Source: Verrucomicrobiota bacterium (GTDB lineage Bacteria; Verrucomicrobiota; Verrucomicrobiia; Chthoniobacterales; UBA10450). Taken from it: a stretch of 64,000 nucleotides of DNA. Shown here piece by piece: positions 45,622 to 57,309 of the stretch. Each line of letters starts with the position of its first letter. Positions within the stretch are counted from its first letter, which is position 1. The stretch lies in NCBI GenBank assembly GCA_003219415.1, contig QHOS01000019.1, positions 1 to 64,000 of the forward strand, read 5' to 3'. A program made the translations under genes and the position numbers. A model generated the notes under the pieces. The model did not search any database. It was given only the letters and a program-made list of their open reading frames with translations, and had not been told where the DNA came from.

Positions 45622-47721
45622 CTAATCGCCGGCAGACGTTCGTCGAAGAGGAACATTCTCTCGGTAGAGCAAGGCGTCTTCTTCGAGAAGATTCTCTAGA
45701 CTGGTTTTCCCCTGCGTCCGGGCAATGGCTACAGCTTGTTGTGTCACCGCGATGGCGTCAGAGAAACGGCCGGTTTCTGCATAACCGGCCGCGAGCGCTC
45801 GAAGAAAGAGGGGTTCTCTCCCACCCGAGAGGGATACCGCCTGCTGCGCTAGCTCCACTGCCTTTGCGCCGTCGCGGATCGAGGCGTCACTTGACGTTCC
45901 CAGAACCCAGGCAAGGTTGCTACGAGAGTGCGGATCTTCGGGGGCCAACGCCATTGCTTTGTTGTAGTGGGCGATCGCCTCCTTCAGGGCACCCTTGCGC
46001 AGAAGGGCGTTACCAAGGCCGGTATGAGCATTCGCGTCATTGGGTTGTATTTGGAGATCCTTCTCCCAGTCAGCGATTGCTTCGTCGATCCTGCCCTTTG
46101 CATAAAGAACGTTTCCGCGGTTGAAATAGGCTTCCGCGTAATCGGGTTGCAGCGTTATCGCTTGTTCGAAGTGGGCCATCGCTTCATCGGGTTGTCCCTT
46201 TCTCGCGAGAGCGTCTCCGATATTCATTTCTACAAACGCGGTACCCAGATTATAATGAGGATGTAACTTACCAGACCTGATTTTCGACGCGGCTTCAAAA
46301 TGCGACATCGCTTCGTCCAGTTCGCCGCGGTCGACGCAGAGGTAGCCGAGGTTGTTGTGGGCAAAATCGTTGTCTGTGGTGACGGCGAGAGCATGCGCCC
46401 AAAGCGTCTCGCTGTTTCGCCAGTAGGAAGTTTGAGTGAATGCCGTGCATGCCAGCGCAGCAATGACCACTATGGTACCTGCGGTAGCTATACCACGCGA
46501 TAATCTGACGTGGCCCACTACTGCTACGTCGCCAGCAACCCAAACTGCGATCAGAAACAAACCGATGGAAGGAAGATAGGTGTAACGGTCGGCATGGCCT
46601 TGTTCACCAACCTGAACGAGGCCAATCACTGGAACCAGCATGACCAGGTACCAGAGCCAACCGGTAAACAGATAAGGTCGCTTATCTCGGAAAACGATTG
46701 CTGCACAAGTGATGACGAGGAGCAATGCAATCGCGAGAACAACCTGCCAAGTTGCCAACGTATCATTTGGATGAGGATAAAACACTGCGAGGCGTGTCGG
46801 CCATAATGTTTTCCAGGCGTAGATCACGTAACTCGTAACCGCATTCTGTGCCCGCCAGAGAAACGGCAACGCAGGAAGCGAACCAGCAGCGCGTTTTTGC
46901 AGCGCAAATGTGATAATGCCAACGCCAGCGGAAAGAATTAGCCAGGGCACCTTTTCCAGAAAAAGGCGTTGTATTATGCGCCTTCGACTGCCGGAGTGCA
47001 TGATTTTCGACTTCCCTTTTGTGGAGACCATTTGATCAAACCGGCGCAGCGGCCAGTAATCCAGAGCGAGAAGGACAATGGGGGCAGTTACCAGCATTGG
47101 CTTGGACATCAACCCTGCCACGAACAGGGCGGTCACCACAACATAGCGCCTTATCGACGCTGTCCGTGCGTAACGAGCGTATGCGTCCAGCATAAGGAAA
47201 AAGAAAACTGCGCTTAGAACGTCTTTTCGCTCGCTCACCCAAGCTACCGACTCGACGTGCAGCGGGTGAACGGCAAATAATGCAGCGACAATGGCACTCT
47301 TCCATAACGCGCCGGTCATCTGCCGCAGTACACGAAACAGCAGGAGCGCTGCGATCGTATGCAACACGAGGTTCGTGGCATGATGGCCTCCAGCGTTCAA
47401 GCCGTACAACCGACAGTCCAACATATGTGACAAGGTCGTTAACGGATGCCAGTTCCGTGCGTGCGGGCTCGTAAAGGCGGCCACTATCCCTTGCAGCGTC
47501 AGCCCGGCCCGGATGGTCGGCGCGTTGTAGACGTACATATCGTCATCGAAATTGACGAAGTCATAACGGATTGTCTGACTGAACACGGCCAGACTAAGCC
47601 CGGTAAGAAGCAAGTATATACCGACGGTTATACTGCGGTTCCGAGCGGCGCGTGGTAATTCACGCGGTCGACGGTCCGGTTGGCGCTTCCTGCTATCCGC
47701 TTTACGGTGACGCACTGCCAT
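45622..47721 (-). CDS. TMTC-like GT-C membrane protein with TPRs (subtype A)
   Basis: FVNFDDDMYVYN, NWHPLTTLSHMLDCRLYGLNAGGHHATNLVLHT, VHPLHVESVAWVSERKDVLSAVFFFLML. Confidence 0.88.
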   Translation of the reverse strand: MAVRHRKADSRKRQPDRRPRELPRAARNRSITVGIYLLLTGLSLAVFSQTIRYDFVNFDDDMYVYNAPTIRAGLTLQGIVAAFTSPHARNWHPLTTLSHMLDCRLYGLNAGGHHATNLVLHTIAALLLFRVLRQMTGALWKSAIVAALFAVHPLHVESVAWVSERKDVLSAVFFFLMLDAYARYARTASIRRYVVVTALFVAGLMSKPMLVTAPIVLLALDYWPLRRFDQMVSTKGKSKIMHSGSRRRIIQRLFLEKVPWLILSAGVGIITFALQKRAAGSLPALPFLWRAQNAVTSYVIYAWKTLWPTRLAVFYPHPNDTLATWQVVLAIALLLVITCAAIVFRDKRPYLFTGWLWYLVMLVPVIGLVQVGEQGHADRYTYLPSIGLFLIAVWVAGDVAVVGHVRLSRGIATAGTIVVIAALACTAFTQTSYWRNSETLWAHALAVTTDNDFAHNNLGYLCVDRGELDEAMSHFEAASKIRSGKLHPHYNLGTAFVEMNIGDALARKGQPDEAMAHFEQAITLQPDYAEAYFNRGNVLYAKGRIDEAIADWEKDLQIQPNDANAHTGLGNALLRKGALKEAIAHYNKAMALAPEDPHSRSNLAWVLGTSSDASIRDGAKAVELAQQAVSLSGGREPLFLRALAAGYAETGRFSDAIAVTQQAVAIARTQGKTSLENLLEEDALLYRENVPLRRTSAGD

Positions 47722-49564
47722 TTGTTAGGCTAGGGTCGCGGAGCGGCTGCTCTTGCTGATATAGTGTAATGTTGCCATGTAGTTCAGCTGCTAGATCGGA
47801 GTTCCCCTGGCTGTTGGCTAATTCAATCCCCTGTTGTGCAGCTTGGATTGCTTCGGAGAACCGGCCACTTTCCGCATAGGCCGCGCCCAACGTGCGGAAA
47901 AGTATTGGTATTCTGCCTCCGGAGATGCGCACGGCTTGTTCTGCCAGTTGGACCGCTTTTGGGCCATTTCGGACCGACTCGTCCGGTGACGTGGCAAATA
48001 CCCACGCCAGGTTGCTCATCGCGTTTCCGTTGTCGGGTTGAATTGCCAACACCTTCTGCCATTCTTCCACACCTTCGGCAACATGACCTTGTTGAGTGAG
48101 AACCGTGCCGACGATGTTGTGGACCTCCATGTCGTCGGGTTGTAGTTCGAGTAATTTGCGGTAGTGAACCAGCGCGTCGGCCACTCGGCCCTTTTGGAGG
48201 AGTGCCTTGGCAAGGTTCTCATGAGCGGGGCTATTGTCTGGCCGAAGGTCCGCGGCTGATTGCAGGAGCGAGATAGCTTCGTCCAGCTTACCTTGCCCTA
48301 AAAAGACGATCCCGAGATTATTTTCAGCGACATCATTGTTTGTGGTTACGGCAAGGGCATGCCTGAATAATGTTTCGCTATCGCGCCAGTACGAGGTCTG
48401 AACCCATGCGCCAGAGCTCAAAGCGGCAATGATAAGTATTGCGGCAGTGCTCAAAGCTACGCGTCGGTGTTGGTACAAAGCGGTCAGGTCAGCAACTGCC
48501 CACGTGAGCGCTAAGTATAAGCCAATCTGAGGTAAATACGTGTATCGGTCAGCGTGGCCCTGCCATCCGACTTGCACGAGTCCGATCACCGGGACAAGCA
48601 TTCCCAAATACCAGAACCAACCTGTAATCAGATAAGATCGCTGCTTTCGCAGGAGTATGGCTGCTGCCGTGATGCAAATTAGAAGCAGTAGACAGGAGAC
48701 AATTTCCCAAAGCGGTAGCCGGTTCTCAGGATGCGGGTAGAACACAGCGAGGTTCACCGGCCAGAGCATCTGCCAGATGTAGAGAACATAGCTGACTATC
48801 GCATTGTTGATTCGTTCCAATATCGGCAACTCCTCGGTCCGGCCGACTGCACCTTTCTGCACAAGAAAAGTGGTCACACTCGAAACGGCCGACAGAGCGA
48901 GCAATGGAATTTTCTCAGCGAGGCGTTTCCACAACTGACCTTTGACTCTATCGAGAGGCCAATAGTCGAGAAGCAAAAGCACAAATGGCGATGTTACAAG
49001 CATCGGCTTAGACATGAGTCCACAGCCGAACACGGATACCACGACCAGATAACGTCCGACCCCAGGTAAACGCACGTAATACGCATAGGCCAGCAGTGTT
49101 AGCATGAAGAAGACACCGCTCAACACATCCTTTCGTTCTGCAATCCAGGCGACCGACTCGACACGCAAGGGATGAATTGCGAATACCGCCGCAACAAAAG
49201 CGCTGCGCCAAATCGCTCCGGTCATCTGTTGCAGCGCAAGAAAAAGGAGTATCGCCGCCAGAGTATGAAGGACGACATTTGTAAAGTGATGCCATCCAGC
49301 CTTTAGCCCATACAACTGGCAGTCGAGCATGTGCGAAATGGTCGTCAGCGGGTGCCAGTTCAAGGAGTGAATATGTGTAAATGCCCAGGCAATACCGCTG
49401 AGGCTAAGACCATCTGTTATTCTCGTGGTCTCATACACGTAACGCGGGTCATCGTAGTTGATGAAGTCGTGCCAGAGCGTTTGGCTAAAAACTAACCAGG
49501 TCAGCGCAGCTAGAGAAAGGCAGATGCCGACCGTTAGCCAGCGGCCGCTCAGTGTTGTCTTCAT
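47702..49564 (-). CDS. TMTC-like GT-C membrane protein with TPRs (subtype A)
   Basis: FINYDDPRYVYET, NWHPLTTISHMLDCQLYGLKAGWHHFTNVVLHT, IHPLRVESVAWIAERKDVLSGVFFML; overlaps the downstream paralog by 20 nt. Confidence 0.88.
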   Translation of the reverse strand: MKTTLSGRWLTVGICLSLAALTWLVFSQTLWHDFINYDDPRYVYETTRITDGLSLSGIAWAFTHIHSLNWHPLTTISHMLDCQLYGLKAGWHHFTNVVLHTLAAILLFLALQQMTGAIWRSAFVAAVFAIHPLRVESVAWIAERKDVLSGVFFMLTLLAYAYYVRLPGVGRYLVVVSVFGCGLMSKPMLVTSPFVLLLLDYWPLDRVKGQLWKRLAEKIPLLALSAVSSVTTFLVQKGAVGRTEELPILERINNAIVSYVLYIWQMLWPVNLAVFYPHPENRLPLWEIVSCLLLLICITAAAILLRKQRSYLITGWFWYLGMLVPVIGLVQVGWQGHADRYTYLPQIGLYLALTWAVADLTALYQHRRVALSTAAILIIAALSSGAWVQTSYWRDSETLFRHALAVTTNNDVAENNLGIVFLGQGKLDEAISLLQSAADLRPDNSPAHENLAKALLQKGRVADALVHYRKLLELQPDDMEVHNIVGTVLTQQGHVAEGVEEWQKVLAIQPDNGNAMSNLAWVFATSPDESVRNGPKAVQLAEQAVRISGGRIPILFRTLGAAYAESGRFSEAIQAAQQGIELANSQGNSDLAAELHGNITLYQQEQPLRDPSLTNGSASP

Positions 49565-49571
49565 CTTGAAG

Positions 49572-49657
49572 AAATGACAAATGACAAATGCCTAATGACG
49601 AAGGAATGACGAACCCCAATTTAAAACAGGGGTGCACTCCCGCTTCGTCATTTCTCT
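49572..49657. repeat. Heptamer-armed inverted repeat between GT39-like and TMTC-like genes
   Basis: aaatgac|aaatgac|aaatgcc|taatgac ... cttcgtcattt. Confidence 0.7.
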
Positions 49658-51269
49658 AGGACTTCCTCTGGTAGATCAAAATGTATTTTCCCAGTTGTGG
49701 CACTGATTGTGGTACGTCACCAAAATAATAATCTGTTTTATCTGGCGCCACCATGTTCACGAAACCTGCCACAGTGTAGTTTTGCGCCGTGTACTCATTA
49801 GCCCAGGTGAATATCAACCGCTCGGATTCCGGACGTTGTAGCCAAGAATCTGGCATCACGACAGAGATGAGAAATTTGGGATGGGCACGTTCGATGTCAC
49901 GAATCATTTCTTGCTGCATTTGGCTGGCATACTTCTGGGGCTCCATCAGGCCGTAAGTATAGATGTAGCCGGTTGCGGAATGTCGGCCGGAATAAAAATA
50001 AATCTGCGGCTCGGAACCCAGCACTGCGATCGTGTCATTTCGGGTCGTATGTTCCCGGAGATATTCGGCAATTCTGATGGATTCCACGAAGGGACTCTCA
50101 GGATAGATTATTCGAGAAGCCTCCGCCGGGGAGGCTTCAAAAAAGAATTTTCTTTCTGCGAGAATCGGCCAAGCAAGAGCAAATCCCAGAATTAAGATCG
50201 GGATAAATCGAACTATGATTGATCGGTTTACACCGAGGTCCGACAATCTGCTGATGGCGACGCCCGCGAGCAGCGAAACAGCTAGGAGCACCAAAACGAA
50301 ATAGTGAAGTCGAAAATAGAATCCCGGGCATAGTGCCAATGCAGAGAAGAATAGGAATGCGAGCAGAAAAACTGCGATAGCACGTGTTCGTTGCGCCCAT
50401 AAACCCGCAACGAGTCCGACTCCAGCCAGTGTCCATATCGGCCAGCCCGCTACAGTTACTTCCTTTGCGCTGTAGAAGAAAATTCGCGGCGCCTGACTGA
50501 AAGGAACCAGGCTGCCGTACTGACGCGCGTAATCGATTGTCCAGAACCAGAATCTCTCGAACACACCGATACGCCAGAAAAGGAGGCAAGTAATTCCCAA
50601 GGGAAGAATTACGCCAGCACTAAAAATCAGAGTTCGCAGGAAAATCCTTTCAGGTCGGAATCGCCGATGAAGATCATTAGAGGCAAGATAAATTGCTCCA
50701 AACAGAGCGAAGAAAACCGCCGGTTGCTTCATTAACACTCCAAGGCCAAAGAGCATCCCGCTCGCGAACACCAATCCAAAAGGTCGGCAGTCTGTGGTTT
50801 TGAGCAGAAGCAATGTTCCCCCGAGCACCGGGAGCAGCACAAAATGTGTAGCGTGGCCGGCAAATCCCAGCACCGAGGGGCTTACAGACAACACGGCATA
50901 ACTCATTCCTGCAGCAAGTCCCGCTACCGAATTCACAAGTCGGCGCCCCAGTAAAAAGATCAAAATGATCGTAGCTGTGTTAACAACAAGCAGTCCCAAA
51001 TGAATTCCGGTTATTGTTTGCCCAAAGATCGACATAATCGCGGCGTAGGCTGCATAAGTGCCTGGAAACTTCATGTTGTAGGCGAGCGTGTATGGCGGAA
51101 CACCTTGCAAAATGAGCTGGCCGGCATAAGCGTATTCGCCTTCGTCGCGCTCGAGTGGAATTCCAAGTAATCGAGTCCTGATGGTAATAACGACGCCAAA
51201 AACGATCACGGCCAGAATCCACCATCCAGCACGAAGACCCTTGCAGCTATCGTCAATCTTATGAGTCAC
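49656..51269 (-). CDS. GT39/ArnT-like membrane glycosyltransferase
   Basis: LLGIPLERDEGEYAYAGQLILQGVPPYTLAYNMKFPGTYAAYAAIMSIFGQT with multiple TMs; C-terminal periplasmic-type domain. Confidence 0.82.
   Translation of the reverse strand: MTHKIDDSCKGLRAGWWILAVIVFGVVITIRTRLLGIPLERDEGEYAYAGQLILQGVPPYTLAYNMKFPGTYAAYAAIMSIFGQTITGIHLGLLVVNTATIILIFLLGRRLVNSVAGLAAGMSYAVLSVSPSVLGFAGHATHFVLLPVLGGTLLLLKTTDCRPFGLVFASGMLFGLGVLMKQPAVFFALFGAIYLASNDLHRRFRPERIFLRTLIFSAGVILPLGITCLLFWRIGVFERFWFWTIDYARQYGSLVPFSQAPRIFFYSAKEVTVAGWPIWTLAGVGLVAGLWAQRTRAIAVFLLAFLFFSALALCPGFYFRLHYFVLVLLAVSLLAGVAISRLSDLGVNRSIIVRFIPILILGFALAWPILAERKFFFEASPAEASRIIYPESPFVESIRIAEYLREHTTRNDTIAVLGSEPQIYFYSGRHSATGYIYTYGLMEPQKYASQMQQEMIRDIERAHPKFLISVVMPDSWLQRPESERLIFTWANEYTAQNYTVAGFVNMVAPDKTDYYFGDVPQSVPQLGKYILIYQRKS
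50116..50138. repeat. Perfect palindrome inside the GT39-like gene
   Basis: gaagcctcc-gccgg-ggaggcttc (9-bp arms). Confidence 0.55.
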
Positions 51270-51420
51270 AAAAGCTGCTATTCCGACGAGAAACGGGAGG
51301 TTGCAACTCGGGCATCTGAAATTCGCCTGCTCCTCAGTCCCTGGAAGTTTTCCGTCTCCACAAAGCTGCGGCGCGGAAGGGGGCCATTTTCCATCAATTC
51401 GCGTGACTCGTCCCTAGCTT

Positions 51421-53487
51421 ATGGATGAAATCGCCGGGCGTCTTTTTTCTTCACGCCGTGGCGTATTCATTTTTGCTCTTGTCTTGGCGGCGGTGACGAT
51501 CTTTGCATACTGGCCCGCGTGGAACGGGGGTCTTCTCTGGGACGATGACGTCTACATCACCAATAACGAGCTACTAACGGCGCCTGATGGTCTGCGGCGA
51601 ATCTGGTTCTCGCTCGATTCGCCGTCGCAGTATTTCCCGCTGGTTTATACAACTTTTCGAATCGAGCACGCGGTTTGGGGCCTCGATCCAACCGGTTATC
51701 ATTGGGTGAATCTTCTGCTGCATATTGCCAACGCACTGCTGGTGTGGTTGGTGCTGGCGCGGTTAAAGGTTCCGGGAGCATGGCTGGCTGGAGCAATTTT
51801 TGCGTTGCATCCCGTGCAGGTGGAATCGGTCGCCTGGATCACGGAACGCAAAAATGTACTAATGGGCTTCTTCTTTTTGCTCACGCTCCTTGCCTGGGTT
51901 GCGTTTCTTGACGAAAAGACGAAGCGGCCCTGGCTATATTATGGACTCGCCCTGATCCTTTATCTGCTGGCGCTTTCGGCCAAAACGACAGCCTGCACCT
52001 TGCCCGTAGCGTTGTTTTTGATCTTATGGCTGCAGAAGAAGCGCATCAGTTGGGAGAGAATTTTCGAGATCAATCCCTTTTTCGTTCTTGGCATCGCCTC
52101 GGGTTTGTTAGCGATTTGGTGGGAGCGATACCACCAAGGCACGAGCCGAGCGATCTTCACGTTCCTAAGCCCGATCGAGCGGGTTCTCGTCGCGAGCCGT
52201 GCCATTTGGTTTTATCTGAGCAAACTTGCCTGGCCATCTAATCTCACATTTATTTATCCGCGATGGGATATCGCGCCGACTCATCTGCTCAACTACGCGT
52301 GGCTGTTGACGGGAGTTTTGGTGTGCGGGGCAATCTATTTTCTCCGTCGATACGTGGGACGCTGTGTTGAGGTCGCAGCGGCATTTTTTATTGCGACCCT
52401 GAGCCCGGTGTTGGGGTTCATTATGCTTTATACATTTCGCTACACGTTTGTAGCCGATCATTATCAGTATTTGGCCTGTATCGGTCCGATCGCCCTGGCA
52501 TCTGCAGGTCTGATCAATTTGGCCGACGTGTCTAAGAACAGCCGCACCTTAATTTTCAGTGTGGCGCTCTGCGTGGTGGCACTCCTGGCGACACTGACGT
52601 GGCGACAAGCCGCAATGTATGGCAACATCGAAACGCTCTGGCGCACGACTCTGTCCAGAAATCCCAACTGCTGGATGGCTCACAACAACTTGGGCATCGT
52701 GCTGTTTGAAAAAGGCCAGCTTGACGATGCGATAGCGCATTATCGGACGACGCTGCAAATGCAGCCCAATTTTTGGGATGCCGATTACAATCTTGGCACG
52801 GCTCTTTTGGGCAAGGGCCAGGTAGACGAGGCGATTTTCCATTGCGACAAAGCAGTCAGGATGCAACCAAACGATCCAGATGCTCAAGTGGCCTTGGCCA
52901 ATGCTCTTCTTCAAAAGAGACAAATCGACGACGCGATCGTTCACTACCAGAAAGCGGTTGCAATACGTCCCGATTACTTTCTTGCCCGTTACGGTCTTGG
53001 CCACGCCCTACTTGAGAGAGGGAAGCTTGATGCGGCGATCGAGCATTCTCGGGCCGCCTTGTTGATTCAGCCTAATAACGCAGACTGTCAGACGATTCTG
53101 GCTATTGCTCTTGATGAAGAAGGTCAATCGGTCGAGGCCGTCAAACACTATGAAAAAGCGTTGGAGATTTCTCCTCAATCGGTTTCCGCGTTAAATAATC
53201 TGGCATGGTTACTGGCCACAGGTTCCAACGCCTCATTGCGAAACGGAGCCAGGGCGATTCAACTTGCGACGCAAGCTGACCAACTCTCTGGAGGCACCAA
53301 TGCGCTCGTACTACGCACGTTGGCAGCGGCATATGCGGAGGCCGGCCAATTTGGAAAAGCGATTGAAAGCGCCCGGAGTGCGATGCAGCTGGGGCGGAGC
53401 CAGGGTGATGATTCGTTAGTCACCGAGCTTCAGCAACAGATCGCACTTTATGAGTTGGGGTTGCCTTATCGTGAAATAGCAAAATAA
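51421..53487 (+). CDS. TMTC-like GT-C membrane protein with TPRs (subtype B)
   Basis: LLWDDDVYITNNELL, YFPLVYTTFRIEHAVWGLDPTGYHWVNLLLHI, ALHPVQVESVAWITERKNVLMGFFFLL; TPRs; ends LYELGLPYREIAK. Confidence 0.87.
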   Translation: MDEIAGRLFSSRRGVFIFALVLAAVTIFAYWPAWNGGLLWDDDVYITNNELLTAPDGLRRIWFSLDSPSQYFPLVYTTFRIEHAVWGLDPTGYHWVNLLLHIANALLVWLVLARLKVPGAWLAGAIFALHPVQVESVAWITERKNVLMGFFFLLTLLAWVAFLDEKTKRPWLYYGLALILYLLALSAKTTACTLPVALFLILWLQKKRISWERIFEINPFFVLGIASGLLAIWWERYHQGTSRAIFTFLSPIERVLVASRAIWFYLSKLAWPSNLTFIYPRWDIAPTHLLNYAWLLTGVLVCGAIYFLRRYVGRCVEVAAAFFIATLSPVLGFIMLYTFRYTFVADHYQYLACIGPIALASAGLINLADVSKNSRTLIFSVALCVVALLATLTWRQAAMYGNIETLWRTTLSRNPNCWMAHNNLGIVLFEKGQLDDAIAHYRTTLQMQPNFWDADYNLGTALLGKGQVDEAIFHCDKAVRMQPNDPDAQVALANALLQKRQIDDAIVHYQKAVAIRPDYFLARYGLGHALLERGKLDAAIEHSRAALLIQPNNADCQTILAIALDEEGQSVEAVKHYEKALEISPQSVSALNNLAWLLATGSNASLRNGARAIQLATQADQLSGGTNALVLRTLAAAYAEAGQFGKAIESARSAMQLGRSQGDDSLVTELQQQIALYELGLPYREIAK

Positions 53488-53550: not shown

Positions 53551-54825
53551 TCAGAGTTCATCGCGCAGAATTTCGAACACCTTCTTGCTCTCCACTACTC
53601 CCGCCAGCGCATCTGTTCCGGGGCCATTGCCAAACCCGACGACGTCTTCAACGGTGACCAAGGCAGATTTCGTGTAAAACGCCGCCGGCTCAGGCTGTTC
53701 GGGCTGCGGTTGTCTGTTCTGACTTTCGTCTTGTTTACCTGGTATTTTCGCTGCTCCATACGATTTATCGCCATTCGGACCGGTGGCCCAGGTAATCCAG
53801 GGCTGGCCGGCAGAATTAAAGCCTAAGAGCGCGATGCCGCTGTCTTTGCGAAAAGGAAATCCATTCAGGTTTAATCCGCCGATCGCCACATCGCCGCAGA
53901 CCACAATCGTCGATTTTTCTCCGCCGTAACTTCGCGCGATGCCAACTGCACGGTCCAGTTCGACCGTTTGGCTCAAGGTTCTCTCCCCGTTGTTTTCCTG
54001 CGCTGCCTTTCGCATTAACCCTGCATCAACCACCAGTAAATACCCGCCAACGTTGTACTGGAGCAATTGGATTGCTCGTCGCACCATATCCGAAAGGCTC
54101 GGCTGCTGACTTCTTTCTTCCACCTGATTCACGAACGCGAGATCTTCTTTACTAAAAACGCCGACCAGTTTCGGACGGCGCCACGCGGGAATCGCGTCCA
54201 GCTCGGCTCGGGTTTGAACAATATCAAACCCGTTGCCACGTAGCTCGAGTAAAAGATCGCGGCTGTCCTGTCGGTCTCCGCCTTTTGTGGCGGGAAGAAA
54301 TTGCGCCGCGCCGCCACCCATCGCTATGTCAACATTTCCGCGATCCACAAACTCGGTTGCGATCTTCTCGGCATCGCTCGGCTCGGCGGGATGTGCGTAA
54401 AAGGCCGCACTCGTCGAATCGGTGAGTTTCGTGTCCGTTATGAGTCCCGTGGCCCGTCCATATTCGCGTGCTAGTTCAATGATACTCTTGATCGCTTTCC
54501 CGTCGGCGTTGATGGCAATGACGCGATTCGCCACTCTCTCACCAGTCGCAATCGCGGTCGCAGCGGCCGCCTGGTCTGGAGCGGCGAAATCCTTTGAATA
54601 ATTCATCACCAAAGCTGCATGAGACATTGAATCGAGGTTCAGGCGCGTGCCGGCGCCAGCAGCATAGGCGCGGGTTGGGGCAAGCCGGGCAGGGGAAAGG
54701 CCTTCTCCAACAAACAAGATAATTCCGAAAGGCTTCCGGATGACCCAGTGCTGAAAATAAAGGACACCAATTCCAGCAAAGGCGAGGAGACAAAAAAGTG
54801 CCAGCAACTGGTTGCGCCACTTCAT
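53551..54825 (-). CDS. Alkaline-phosphatase-fold protein with degenerate active site (ORF open to 54861)
   Basis: KPFGIILFVGEGLSPARLAPTRAYAAG...SKDFAAPDQAAAATAIATGERVANRVIAINADGK...TDTKLTDSTSAAFYAHPAEPSDAEKIATEFV..VDIAMGGGAAQF; PhoA-like layout but motif residues altered. Confidence 0.8.
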   Translation of the reverse strand: MKWRNQLLALFCLLAFAGIGVLYFQHWVIRKPFGIILFVGEGLSPARLAPTRAYAAGAGTRLNLDSMSHAALVMNYSKDFAAPDQAAAATAIATGERVANRVIAINADGKAIKSIIELAREYGRATGLITDTKLTDSTSAAFYAHPAEPSDAEKIATEFVDRGNVDIAMGGGAAQFLPATKGGDRQDSRDLLLELRGNGFDIVQTRAELDAIPAWRRPKLVGVFSKEDLAFVNQVEERSQQPSLSDMVRRAIQLLQYNVGGYLLVVDAGLMRKAAQENNGERTLSQTVELDRAVGIARSYGGEKSTIVVCGDVAIGGLNLNGFPFRKDSGIALLGFNSAGQPWITWATGPNGDKSYGAAKIPGKQDESQNRQPQPEQPEPAAFYTKSALVTVEDVVGFGNGPGTDALAGVVESKKVFEILRDEL

Positions 54826-54905
54826 TACCTTCCTTGTAGCGGCGGTATATGACTGTCGCAAATAGTGAAGCAGCTTTGTAAAGTGCGTGTTCTGAAGCTG
54901 GTAAC

Positions 54906-56513
54906 TTGCAGACTGACCCCGTATCCGAGAAGAAAGAACCGCTTGTCGACCTTCTCATTCACCAGCAAAGTGCGCGACATATGGCTGGTCCAGTGATGCT
55001 AATCATTCGCGACGGCTGGGGCATCAATCCGGGTGGCAAGGACAAGCGCAAGGAAAATGGTGATGCAACCCTTCTCGCGTCGACTCCATTTCATGACAAG
55101 CTCTACCGGGATTATCCAGGCTCCAAATTGAGCGCAAGCGGAAGCGATGTGGGCCTGCCGGAAGGACAAATGGGCAACTCTGAAGTCGGCCATCTCAATC
55201 TGGGGGCCGGTAGGATCGTTTACCAGGATTTGACGCGAATTAATAAAGCAATCGACGAGGGCGAATTAACTCGCAATCGAGTTTTGCAGGAAACCTTTGC
55301 CAGTGCGCGCGGTCATCGCCTTCATTTGCTTGGACTGGTTTCAGATGGTGGTGTGCATAGTCATTATTCGCACATGATCGCGCTTGCGAACGCGGCGCAT
55401 GATGCAGGGGTCGCGGAGATTTTCGTCCACGCTTTCACGGACGGACGCGACACGTCGCCGACCGGCGGCGCCGCTTATCTAAAAACTTGCGAGAAAGAAC
55501 TGGAAAAAAGCGGCGGGCAAATTGTCACGGTTGTGGGCCGTTATTTTGCGATGGATCGGGATCGGCGTTGGGATCGCACCAAAAAAGCATGGGACGCAGT
55601 TGTTCTCGGTCGCGGCGAAATCTCCAAATCCTCGCCATCGACGGCTGTGGATCAGCAATACAAAAACGGCAAAACGGACGAGTTCATGCCGCCGTTGATT
55701 TTTTCTCACGCAAATGAGCAGCGGGTGCGTGATGGCGACGTGGTCTTATTTTTCAATTTCCGCGCCGATCGTGCCCGCCAATTGTCACAGGCATTTTTGC
55801 TGAAGAATTTCGATGGCTTTGACCGCGAGGTCTGGCCGCAAGTGGAGTTTGTCACGCTAACGCAATACGATGCGACCTATTCTTCGCCGTTCATTTTTGC
55901 GCCGGAAGAGCTCGCCGATATCTTGGGCGAAATCGTCAGCGCAGCCGGCAAACGGCAGTTGCGCATCGCTGAGACGGAAAAGTACGCACACGTGACTTAC
56001 TTTTTTAACGGGGGCATCGAGAAGCCGTTTCCGGGCGAAGACCGCAAGCTGATCCCTTCACCAAAGGTCGCTACCTACGATTTGAAACCGGAGATGAGCG
56101 CGTTCGAAGTCACCGATGAAGTGCTCGCACAAATGGCGAATTACGACCTGATCATCCTCAACTTCGCCAATGCCGACATGGTCGGCCATACCGGCGTGAT
56201 CGAAGCGGGAGTCAAAGCTGTAGAGACAGTGGATAAATGCGTGGCGCGAATTATTCCCAAACTTCTCGAGCTTGACGGCAAAGCTATCGTGACCGCCGAC
56301 CACGGCAATTGCGAGAAGATGCGTAACGCTGATGGTTCACCCAATACTGCGCACACGAGCAATCTTGTGCATTTCATCTACGTGGCCAACGATGCTGCGC
56401 GATTCCGGTGCGAAGACGGAATTCTGGCCGATGTGGCACCAACTCTTTTGTTTTTGCTTGGACTGCCTCAACCAAAAAAGATGACTGGCCACAGTTTGCT
56501 CGTGCCAGCTTAG
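54906..56513 (+). CDS. gpmI: 2,3-bisphosphoglycerate-independent phosphoglycerate mutase (alternative start 54981)
   Basis: LIIRDGWGINP, LPEGQMGNSEVGHLNLGAGR, HAFTDGRDTSP, FFNFRADRARQLSQAF, NADMVGHTG, TADHGNCE. Confidence 0.97.
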   Translation: MQTDPVSEKKEPLVDLLIHQQSARHMAGPVMLIIRDGWGINPGGKDKRKENGDATLLASTPFHDKLYRDYPGSKLSASGSDVGLPEGQMGNSEVGHLNLGAGRIVYQDLTRINKAIDEGELTRNRVLQETFASARGHRLHLLGLVSDGGVHSHYSHMIALANAAHDAGVAEIFVHAFTDGRDTSPTGGAAYLKTCEKELEKSGGQIVTVVGRYFAMDRDRRWDRTKKAWDAVVLGRGEISKSSPSTAVDQQYKNGKTDEFMPPLIFSHANEQRVRDGDVVLFFNFRADRARQLSQAFLLKNFDGFDREVWPQVEFVTLTQYDATYSSPFIFAPEELADILGEIVSAAGKRQLRIAETEKYAHVTYFFNGGIEKPFPGEDRKLIPSPKVATYDLKPEMSAFEVTDEVLAQMANYDLIILNFANADMVGHTGVIEAGVKAVETVDKCVARIIPKLLELDGKAIVTADHGNCEKMRNADGSPNTAHTSNLVHFIYVANDAARFRCEDGILADVAPTLLFLLGLPQPKKMTGHSLLVPA

Positions 56514-56538: not shown

Positions 56539-57309
56539 TCACCCGTCTTCGCCACGTCTACTGCGGACAGGCCGATCCCGGCTCCAGGCTACAATGTCGT
56601 CGAATGTGATTTCGAACTTCCGATTAATCACTCGTGTTCCAGCCACCGCGATTCGGTGCAACAGCCGAATGTGGTACTCGGTTCTTGTTTCGTGCCAGAT
56701 GGGTTTACGGACGAGCTTGAGCGTACCGTCGTCTTCCACAAGAGCGCCCCAATCCACAGGAATCTCCGAATCGCGGAATAACTCCTCAGGCAGAACGAGG
56801 AAATACAAATTGGCGCAGCGATAGCGAAGTAACTTGTCGAATTTGGTGCAATCATAGAGGCGATTTTGCAGGACACGCAGCTCACGTAAAAGTCGCGCGT
56901 AACCGCGGTGGCCGACTGCGGTGAAATCAGGCAAATCGAATTCGGGAAATAGGGAATCGCCGTTCCGCAGGTTCGGGTAATGTGCGCGGAGGCGCTGTTC
57001 GAGAGTCTGGCGGCGCTGGGAAATCGTTTCGAGTCGCTGCCGGGCCGCTTCGCTCTGACAATTATCTCGCCGCAAATCGCAGAGCGCCTGTTTACACTCA
57101 AAGATCGCTATCGATCCAACCTGCTTAGGCGCCAATCGATACGCGGTGACATCGGCACGATACCGGCAGTTTGGCAGACTCACTTCCATCGCGCACGCGG
57201 AATAACCTTGGGCTTGTGCCCACAGAAATGCCAGCCGCTTCAACCGAGCGTGTCTCTCAGTTTCGCCGTGTTTTATTCCCGCAGCCATCTCGCGAGCTCG
57301 CGTGCCCAA
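56539..57309 (-). CDS. Uncharacterised protein with PD-(D/E)XK-nuclease-like N-terminal region (alternative start 57288)
   Basis: MEVSLPNCRYRADVTAYRLAPKQVGSIAIFECKQALCDLRRDN: E...D...E-x-K spacing. Confidence 0.5.
   Translation of the reverse strand: MGTRAREMAAGIKHGETERHARLKRLAFLWAQAQGYSACAMEVSLPNCRYRADVTAYRLAPKQVGSIAIFECKQALCDLRRDNCQSEAARQRLETISQRRQTLEQRLRAHYPNLRNGDSLFPEFDLPDFTAVGHRGYARLLRELRVLQNRLYDCTKFDKLLRYRCANLYFLVLPEELFRDSEIPVDWGALVEDDGTLKLVRKPIWHETRTEYHIRLLHRIAVAGTRVINRKFEITFDDIVAWSRDRPVRSRRGEDG

What the first reader, a model, noticed from the sequence alone, without database searches (positions are those of the whole stretch)
53551..54825. Pseudo-alkaline phosphatase: PhoA-like fold with nucleophile and metal-ligand motifs replaced
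Sequence: the canonical D-S-A-A-[SG]-A-T-A nucleophile segment reads PDQAAAATAIATG, so Gln replaces Ser (verified from DNA: cca gac cag gcg gcc gct gcg acc). The N-terminal GDG metal motif is GEG. The E-G-G-x-I-D-x-x-x-H segment is VDAGLMRKAAQ, the T-A-D-H segment is VCGDV, and the H-T segment near the C-terminus is LVTVEDV. The ORF is intact with a signal anchor, so it is not simply decayed. Inference: a non-catalytic, binding or regulatory role.
Basis: partly seen in the sequence, partly recalled or inferred. Interest (0 to 1): 0.7.

Follow-up and report, generated by a model that had tools for sequence, protein, structure and literature searches.

The report
Membrane-anchored dead alkaline phosphatase clade
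A soil bacterium (Candidatus Udaeobacter) carries an intact gene for a protein folded like alkaline phosphatase but stripped of its catalytic residues, and the same 'dead' version, fixed to the cell membrane, is inherited across much of its bacterial class, so it probably does something other than remove phosphates.

Summary
Window 53551-54825, minus strand, encodes an intact 424-aa PF00245 (PhoA) protein with Gln at the nucleophile; Arg166, zinc ligands Asp327/His331/His370/His412, Asp51 and Glu322 are replaced. It is not local decay. Of 104 pseudo sequences (query included), none keeps more than 3 of 9 core catalytic residues; full-length active homologues from the same phylum keep all 9. 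With catalytic and anchor columns left out, the pseudo-enzymes form one clade (bootstrap 99 / SH-aLRT 97) nested among active enzymes and found only within the window's class. Purifying selection is strong (median dN/dS 0.096). The clade shares a new trait: a fixed-length N-terminal transmembrane anchor, start codon 33-37 residues before strand beta-1 in 104/104, Phe16 invariant. Active relatives mostly have secretion signals and variable linkers. The window's genome has no active PF00245 enzyme, so this is no decoy subunit of a PhoA. Best explanation: an inner-membrane, periplasm-facing, non-catalytic scaffold or sensor working like YejM/PbgA (same superfamily, different family). Partner and ligand are unknown, and no activity was assayed. 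Such genes are probably miscounted as phoA in annotations.

The parts
53551..54825 (-). pseudo-alkaline phosphatase (pAP), 424 aa, PF00245 fold, ATG start at 54825
   Evidence: start codon position conserved in the clade
54742..54822 (-). N-terminal transmembrane anchor helix (residues 2-28), followed by a short linker into beta-1 at residue 34
   Evidence: helix 2-28 in the model; fixed distance of start codon to beta-1, R4 and F16 nearly or fully invariant
54703..54705 (-). E41, in place of metal ligand D51
54571..54573 (-). Q85, in place of nucleophile S102
54379..54381 (-). P149, in place of phosphate-binding R166
53998..54027 (-). residues 267-276 DAGLMRKAAQ, in place of the E322...D327-K328...H331 metal motif
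53887..53892 (-). D312-V313, in place of D369-H370
53776..53793 (-). residues 345-350 TWATGP; W346, G349 and P350 conserved in nearly the whole pseudo clade
53701..53763 (-). low-confidence linker, residues 355-375
   Evidence: pLDDT below 50
53656..53658 (-). V390, in place of zinc ligand H412
54826..54980 (.). shared upstream region between divergent pAP and gpmI
   Evidence: divergent pair kept in the window and all 18 other f1 loci scanned, and in families f5 and f10
54981..56513 (+). gpmI, cofactor-independent phosphoglycerate mutase, divergent neighbour (context, not part of the protein)
   Evidence: PF06415 E=8.9e-79, PF01676 E=8e-74

Best explanation
It is an old, mainly vertically inherited pseudo-enzyme of the PhoA family. 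An active secreted alkaline phosphatase in an ancestor within the window's class lost its nucleophile, phosphate-binding arginine and zinc sites and came to have a fixed-length N-terminal transmembrane anchor, leaving a folded PhoA domain held tightly against the outer face of the inner membrane. It most likely works as a non-catalytic scaffold or sensor: the PhoA domain binds a periplasmic partner or ligand (perhaps a phosphate-bearing envelope molecule), and the conserved anchor helix contacts a membrane partner, as YejM/PbgA does with LapB. Shown: fold homology, loss of catalytic residues throughout the clade, single origin, purifying selection, fixed anchor. Inferred: topology, absence of activity, binding or regulatory function, partner.
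For: Full-length PF00245 match and PhoA fold model. All 104 pseudo sequences keep only 0-3 of 9 core residues; every full-length active homologue keeps 9/9. Pseudo clade monophyletic, 99/97, with catalytic and anchor columns removed. dN/dS of 0.05-0.12 against the query in close relatives, all-pair median 0.096. Start codon 33-37 residues before beta-1 in 104/104; F16 48/48 and R4 45/48 among non-redundant members; mean column entropy of the anchor (1.40 bits) lower than of the domain (1.67). Active relatives instead mostly have secretion signals and variable linkers. The own genome has only this PF00245 gene. Precedent: YejM acts on LapB through its transmembrane domain (PMC7240159, PMC6921655).
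Against: No binding partner, ligand or phenotype is known. Gene neighbourhood differs between lineages (gpmI divergent in three families, ksgA downstream in another branch), so it does not point to one pathway. YejM was itself reported to have Mg-dependent phosphatase activity (PMC7576196), a warning against calling proteins dead from sequence. A carboxylate/Thr set resembling the third (Mg) site survives in 74 of 88 members of the window's order. One family (f9) and two 0.9-Mb genomes lack the gene, so it is not universally needed.
Confidence: 0.6

Rival explanations
1. A weak or re-tuned single-metal enzyme: the Mg (M3-like) site E41/T138/D267, with D136, still binds one divalent ion and supports slow hydrolysis or another reaction on an unknown substrate.
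For: D/E at position 51, S/T at 155 and D/E at 322 are kept together in 74 of 88 members of the order; YejM, long thought not to be an enzyme, was reported as an Mg-dependent phosphatase.
Against: Only 1 of 16 members in other orders keeps that set. The nucleophile column is highly variable (entropy 2.65 bits next to columns of about 0.2-0.9) and R166 is kept in 1 of 104. No His, Cys, Ser or Lys is conserved at 85% or more across the clade.
Confidence: 0.15
2. A structural remnant whose metal-free PhoA domain only serves as a rigid cap or spacer for a functional transmembrane helix.
For: Anchor more conserved than the domain; in PbgA the transmembrane part is the essential one.
Against: The domain itself is under strong purifying selection and keeps clade-wide invariant residues such as R124, Y262, G302 and the W346-G349-P350 segment.
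Confidence: 0.12
3. A regulatory partner (hetero-dimer subunit) of an active PhoA in the same cell.
For: PhoA-family enzymes are dimers (general knowledge); some genomes of the order also hold active PhoA homologues.
Against: The window's genome (96.5% complete) and most of its family hold only the pseudo copy.
Confidence: 0.04
4. A decaying pseudogene.
For: Catalytic residues are gone; one relative (G053) has an in-frame TAA.
Against: Open reading frame kept in nearly all matched genomes, dN/dS about 0.1, single deep origin.
Confidence: 0.01

Closest known systems
PhoA alkaline phosphatases (Pfam PF00245; E. coli PhoA, shrimp and mammalian alkaline phosphatases, TAB5)
   Same: Full-length fold and domain order; about 19-24% identity in the structure alignments; D101, the GGG loop and D346 kept
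   Different: Nucleophile, R166 and most zinc ligands lost; membrane anchor running straight into beta-1 instead of a signal peptide and linker
YejM/PbgA/LapC of Enterobacteria
   Same: Inner-membrane-anchored protein with an alkaline-phosphatase-superfamily periplasmic domain thought to be non-catalytic or weakly catalytic, regulating through its transmembrane part (PMC7240159, PMC6921655, PMC7576196)
   Different: YejM has five transmembrane helices and an LtaS/sulfatase-like domain; pAP has one helix and a PhoA (PF00245) domain; no evidence that pAP acts on LapB/LpxC
Active alkaline phosphatase L150 (genome G228, same class, f14)
   Same: 33% identity; same layout at the C-terminal motif (ALHTANDV against ALVTVEDV); branches close to the pseudo clade
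   Different: Keeps all nine core catalytic residues; its N-terminus reads as a secretion signal
GpmI (iPGM), the divergent neighbour
   Same: Also of the alkaline phosphatase superfamily (general knowledge)
   Different: Glycolytic enzyme of different Pfam families; neighbourhood only

Membership tests
PF00245 alkaline phosphatase fold family | Full-length profile match above curated cut-off | tested here: met
   168 bits against cut-off 24.4, profile 4-417 of 423
PF00245 alkaline phosphatase fold family | Alkaline phosphatase fold | tested here: met
   AlphaFold model pTM 0.87; PDB alkaline phosphatases are all the top matches, TMq up to 0.82
Active PhoA enzyme | Serine nucleophile in D-S-A | tested here: not met
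   Q85 here; S in 17/104 of the clade
Active PhoA enzyme | Arg166 phosphate ligand | tested here: not met
   P149 here; R in 1/104
Active PhoA enzyme | Zn1 and Zn2 ligands (D51, D327, H331, D369, H370, H412) | tested here: not met
   E41, R272, Q276, D312 (kept), V313, V390
Active PhoA enzyme | Phosphomonoesterase activity | not testable with these tools
   needs purified protein
NCBIfam NF007810 alkaline phosphatase equivalog | Score above 540 bits | tested here: not met
   97.7 bits
YejM/PbgA family | Sequence family and architecture of YejM (sulfatase-type domain, five TM helices) | tested here: not met
   only PF00245 matched; one helix before beta-1
YejM/PbgA-like mode of action | Membrane-anchored non-catalytic domain acting through a transmembrane partner | tested here: inconclusive
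   anchor conserved and fixed in length; no partner known; LpxC present in the genome

The most novel reading that the evidence does not exclude
A widespread family of membrane-anchored pseudo-alkaline phosphatases, which arose once by loss of catalysis together with a fixed transmembrane anchor, forms an undescribed envelope sensor or regulator in Verrucomicrobiota.
Probability: 0.4. Interest if true: 0.75.

Novelty: new variant of a known kind. Interest (0 to 1): 0.6.

Why it matters
Pseudo-enzymes are known in many families, but my literature searches found no description of one inside PF00245. Here a dead branch has persisted across a bacterial class under strong selection, which makes its unknown role testable by deletion. 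Udaeobacter is described as ubiquitous and abundant in soil (PMC5615132), and this protein scores far above the curated PF00245 cut-off, so surveys that count phoA genes for phosphorus cycling may count a protein that probably frees no phosphate. The association of catalytic loss with a fixed membrane anchor also offers a clean case of enzyme-to-regulator conversion.

Tried and rejected
Gln as replacement nucleophile: rejected, because the position is far more variable than its neighbours. Alternative metal or catalytic set: no His, Cys, Ser or Lys conserved at 85% or more across non-redundant members. Function by gene neighbourhood: gpmI divergent in f1, f5, f10; ksgA adjacent in f20, f30, f37, f39, f40, f44, f50; transglutaminase-like and discoidin-like genes near in some; no single pathway emerges. 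The first neighbourhood run, with overlap filtering, lost some genes in these GC-rich loci and was replaced by directed tblastn. Distribution outside the class: ten of the best non-class profile matches were read and all carry the active residues. Literature: no paper found on PF00245 pseudo-enzymes.

Full report
The gene. Window 53551-54825 on the minus strand encodes 424 aa with no internal stop. An upstream TTG at 54861 is possible, but the ATG at 54825 matches the start position found across the clade. The protein matches PF00245 over nearly its whole length (E=4.5e-49), finds PDB alkaline phosphatases by sequence, and its AlphaFold model (pLDDT 89, pTM 0.87) has alkaline phosphatases as its best PDB matches.

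The catalytic residues. Against E. coli PhoA the query reads D51->E, S102->Q, R166->P, E322->D, D327->R, H331->Q, H370->V, H412->V; D101, D153, T155, K328 and D369 are kept.

It is a clade, not a local accident. Named relatives are Candidatus Udaeobacter and other Verrucomicrobia. A match occurs in 77 of 83 genomes of the family and 187 of 213 of the order (a minority of the order's matches are active PhoA paralogues only). I extracted 104 pseudo sequences, the query's own locus included, and 36 active rows, of which one is a duplicate of E. coli PhoA and one is truncated. Rows were sorted by the three histidines 331, 370 and 412; the other six core residues are an independent check. Pseudo sequences keep 0-3 of nine core residues (D51, S102, R166, E322, D327, H331, D369, H370, H412), while every full-length active row keeps all nine, with nothing in between. 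Among 48 representatives below 65% identity the result is the same. Active paralogues from the same order keep the full site in the same alignment, so the alignment is not at fault.

One origin. A careful maximum-likelihood tree built without the catalytic columns and without the anchor puts all pseudo sequences in one clade with support 99/97, nested among active enzymes, with active sequences L150, L158 and L161 of the same class nearest (a quick tree with all columns agrees). The branch order among those three is not well resolved. In a phylum-wide profile search the weakest pseudo member listed scores E=7e-93 and the best match outside the class 3e-60; ten sampled matches outside the class all carry the active residues. 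Within the class some families show an active enzyme instead, for example f15 (L160).

Selection. dN/dS against the query is 0.05-0.12 among close relatives, and the median over 126 pairs is 0.096. The former nucleophile column has entropy 2.65 bits between neighbours of 0.23 and 0.85; the positions of R166, H331, H370 and H412 are also among the more variable. The fold is preserved while the old active site is free to drift.

The anchor. In 104 of 104 pseudo sequences a start codon lies 33-37 residues before beta-1, exactly 34 in 83 of them. The stretch is a single hydrophobic helix (model helix 2-28) with R4 in 45/48 and F16 in 48/48 representatives. Active relatives mostly show secretion signals, Tat-like motifs or long variable linkers. 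Topology (N-terminus inside, domain in the periplasm) follows from the positively charged N-terminus and is inferred, as is the absence of cleavage.

Other constraints. Polar residues conserved across the clade are few: R4, R52, D84, R124, R185, N278, D291, three Tyr and W346. No conserved His, Cys, Ser or Lys set could form a replacement site. A carboxylate/Thr trio like the Mg site remains in 74/88 sequences of the order but 1/16 elsewhere in the class, so a single structural ion is possible in the query.

Context. In the window's family and in f5 and f10 the gene is divergent from gpmI; in another branch of the class ksgA lies next to it, on the same strand in all but one locus (Pfam identities). 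The two arrangements fall on different branches and do not point to one pathway. The own genome has no second PF00245 gene, one PhoD-type match above cut-off, a sub-threshold PhoX match, and LpxC.

Mechanism. The most likely role is a membrane-tethered non-catalytic scaffold or sensor. YejM/PbgA is the working analogy: an alkaline-phosphatase-superfamily periplasmic domain on a membrane part that contacts LapB; its transmembrane domain suffices for the interaction (PMC7240159) and is the essential part (PMC6921655). The analogy is of mode, not of family. YejM has also been reported to be a Mg-dependent phosphatase (PMC7576196), so an assay is required before pAP can be called inactive.

Novelty. 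Searches of the paper library found no PF00245 pseudo-enzyme; the library is incomplete. I rate it a new variant of a known kind: a pseudo-enzyme in a family where I found none described, with an unusually deep and clean history.

Noticed in passing
window 47702-53487: Neighbouring block of membrane proteins with TPR repeats and a PMT_2-type glycosyltransferase; in most relatives of the family this position next to pAP holds an F5/8 type C (discoidin-like) protein instead.
   Followed up: partly
L149, L152, L153, L155, L156, L157, L163, L175, L176, L180, L181: In a second branch of the class pAP is followed by ksgA/rsmA (16S rRNA dimethyltransferase) on the same strand, an apparent operon across several families.
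   Followed up: partly
L083, L084, L086, L076, L078, L080, L081, L101, L111: A small, apparently exported transglutaminase-like protein with no Pfam match lies near pAP in parts of f1 and f4.
   Followed up: partly
genomes of family f9 and two 0.9-Mb genomes of f13: No PF00245 gene of either kind found; the pseudo-phosphatase can be lost or absent.
   Followed up: no
L006 (G053:C393): One same-genus relative has an in-frame TAA inside the orthologue; assembly error or recent decay.
   Followed up: no
window 56539-57309: Minus-strand gene with a sub-threshold MmcB-like match, kept between gpmI and hemB in much of the family.
   Followed up: no
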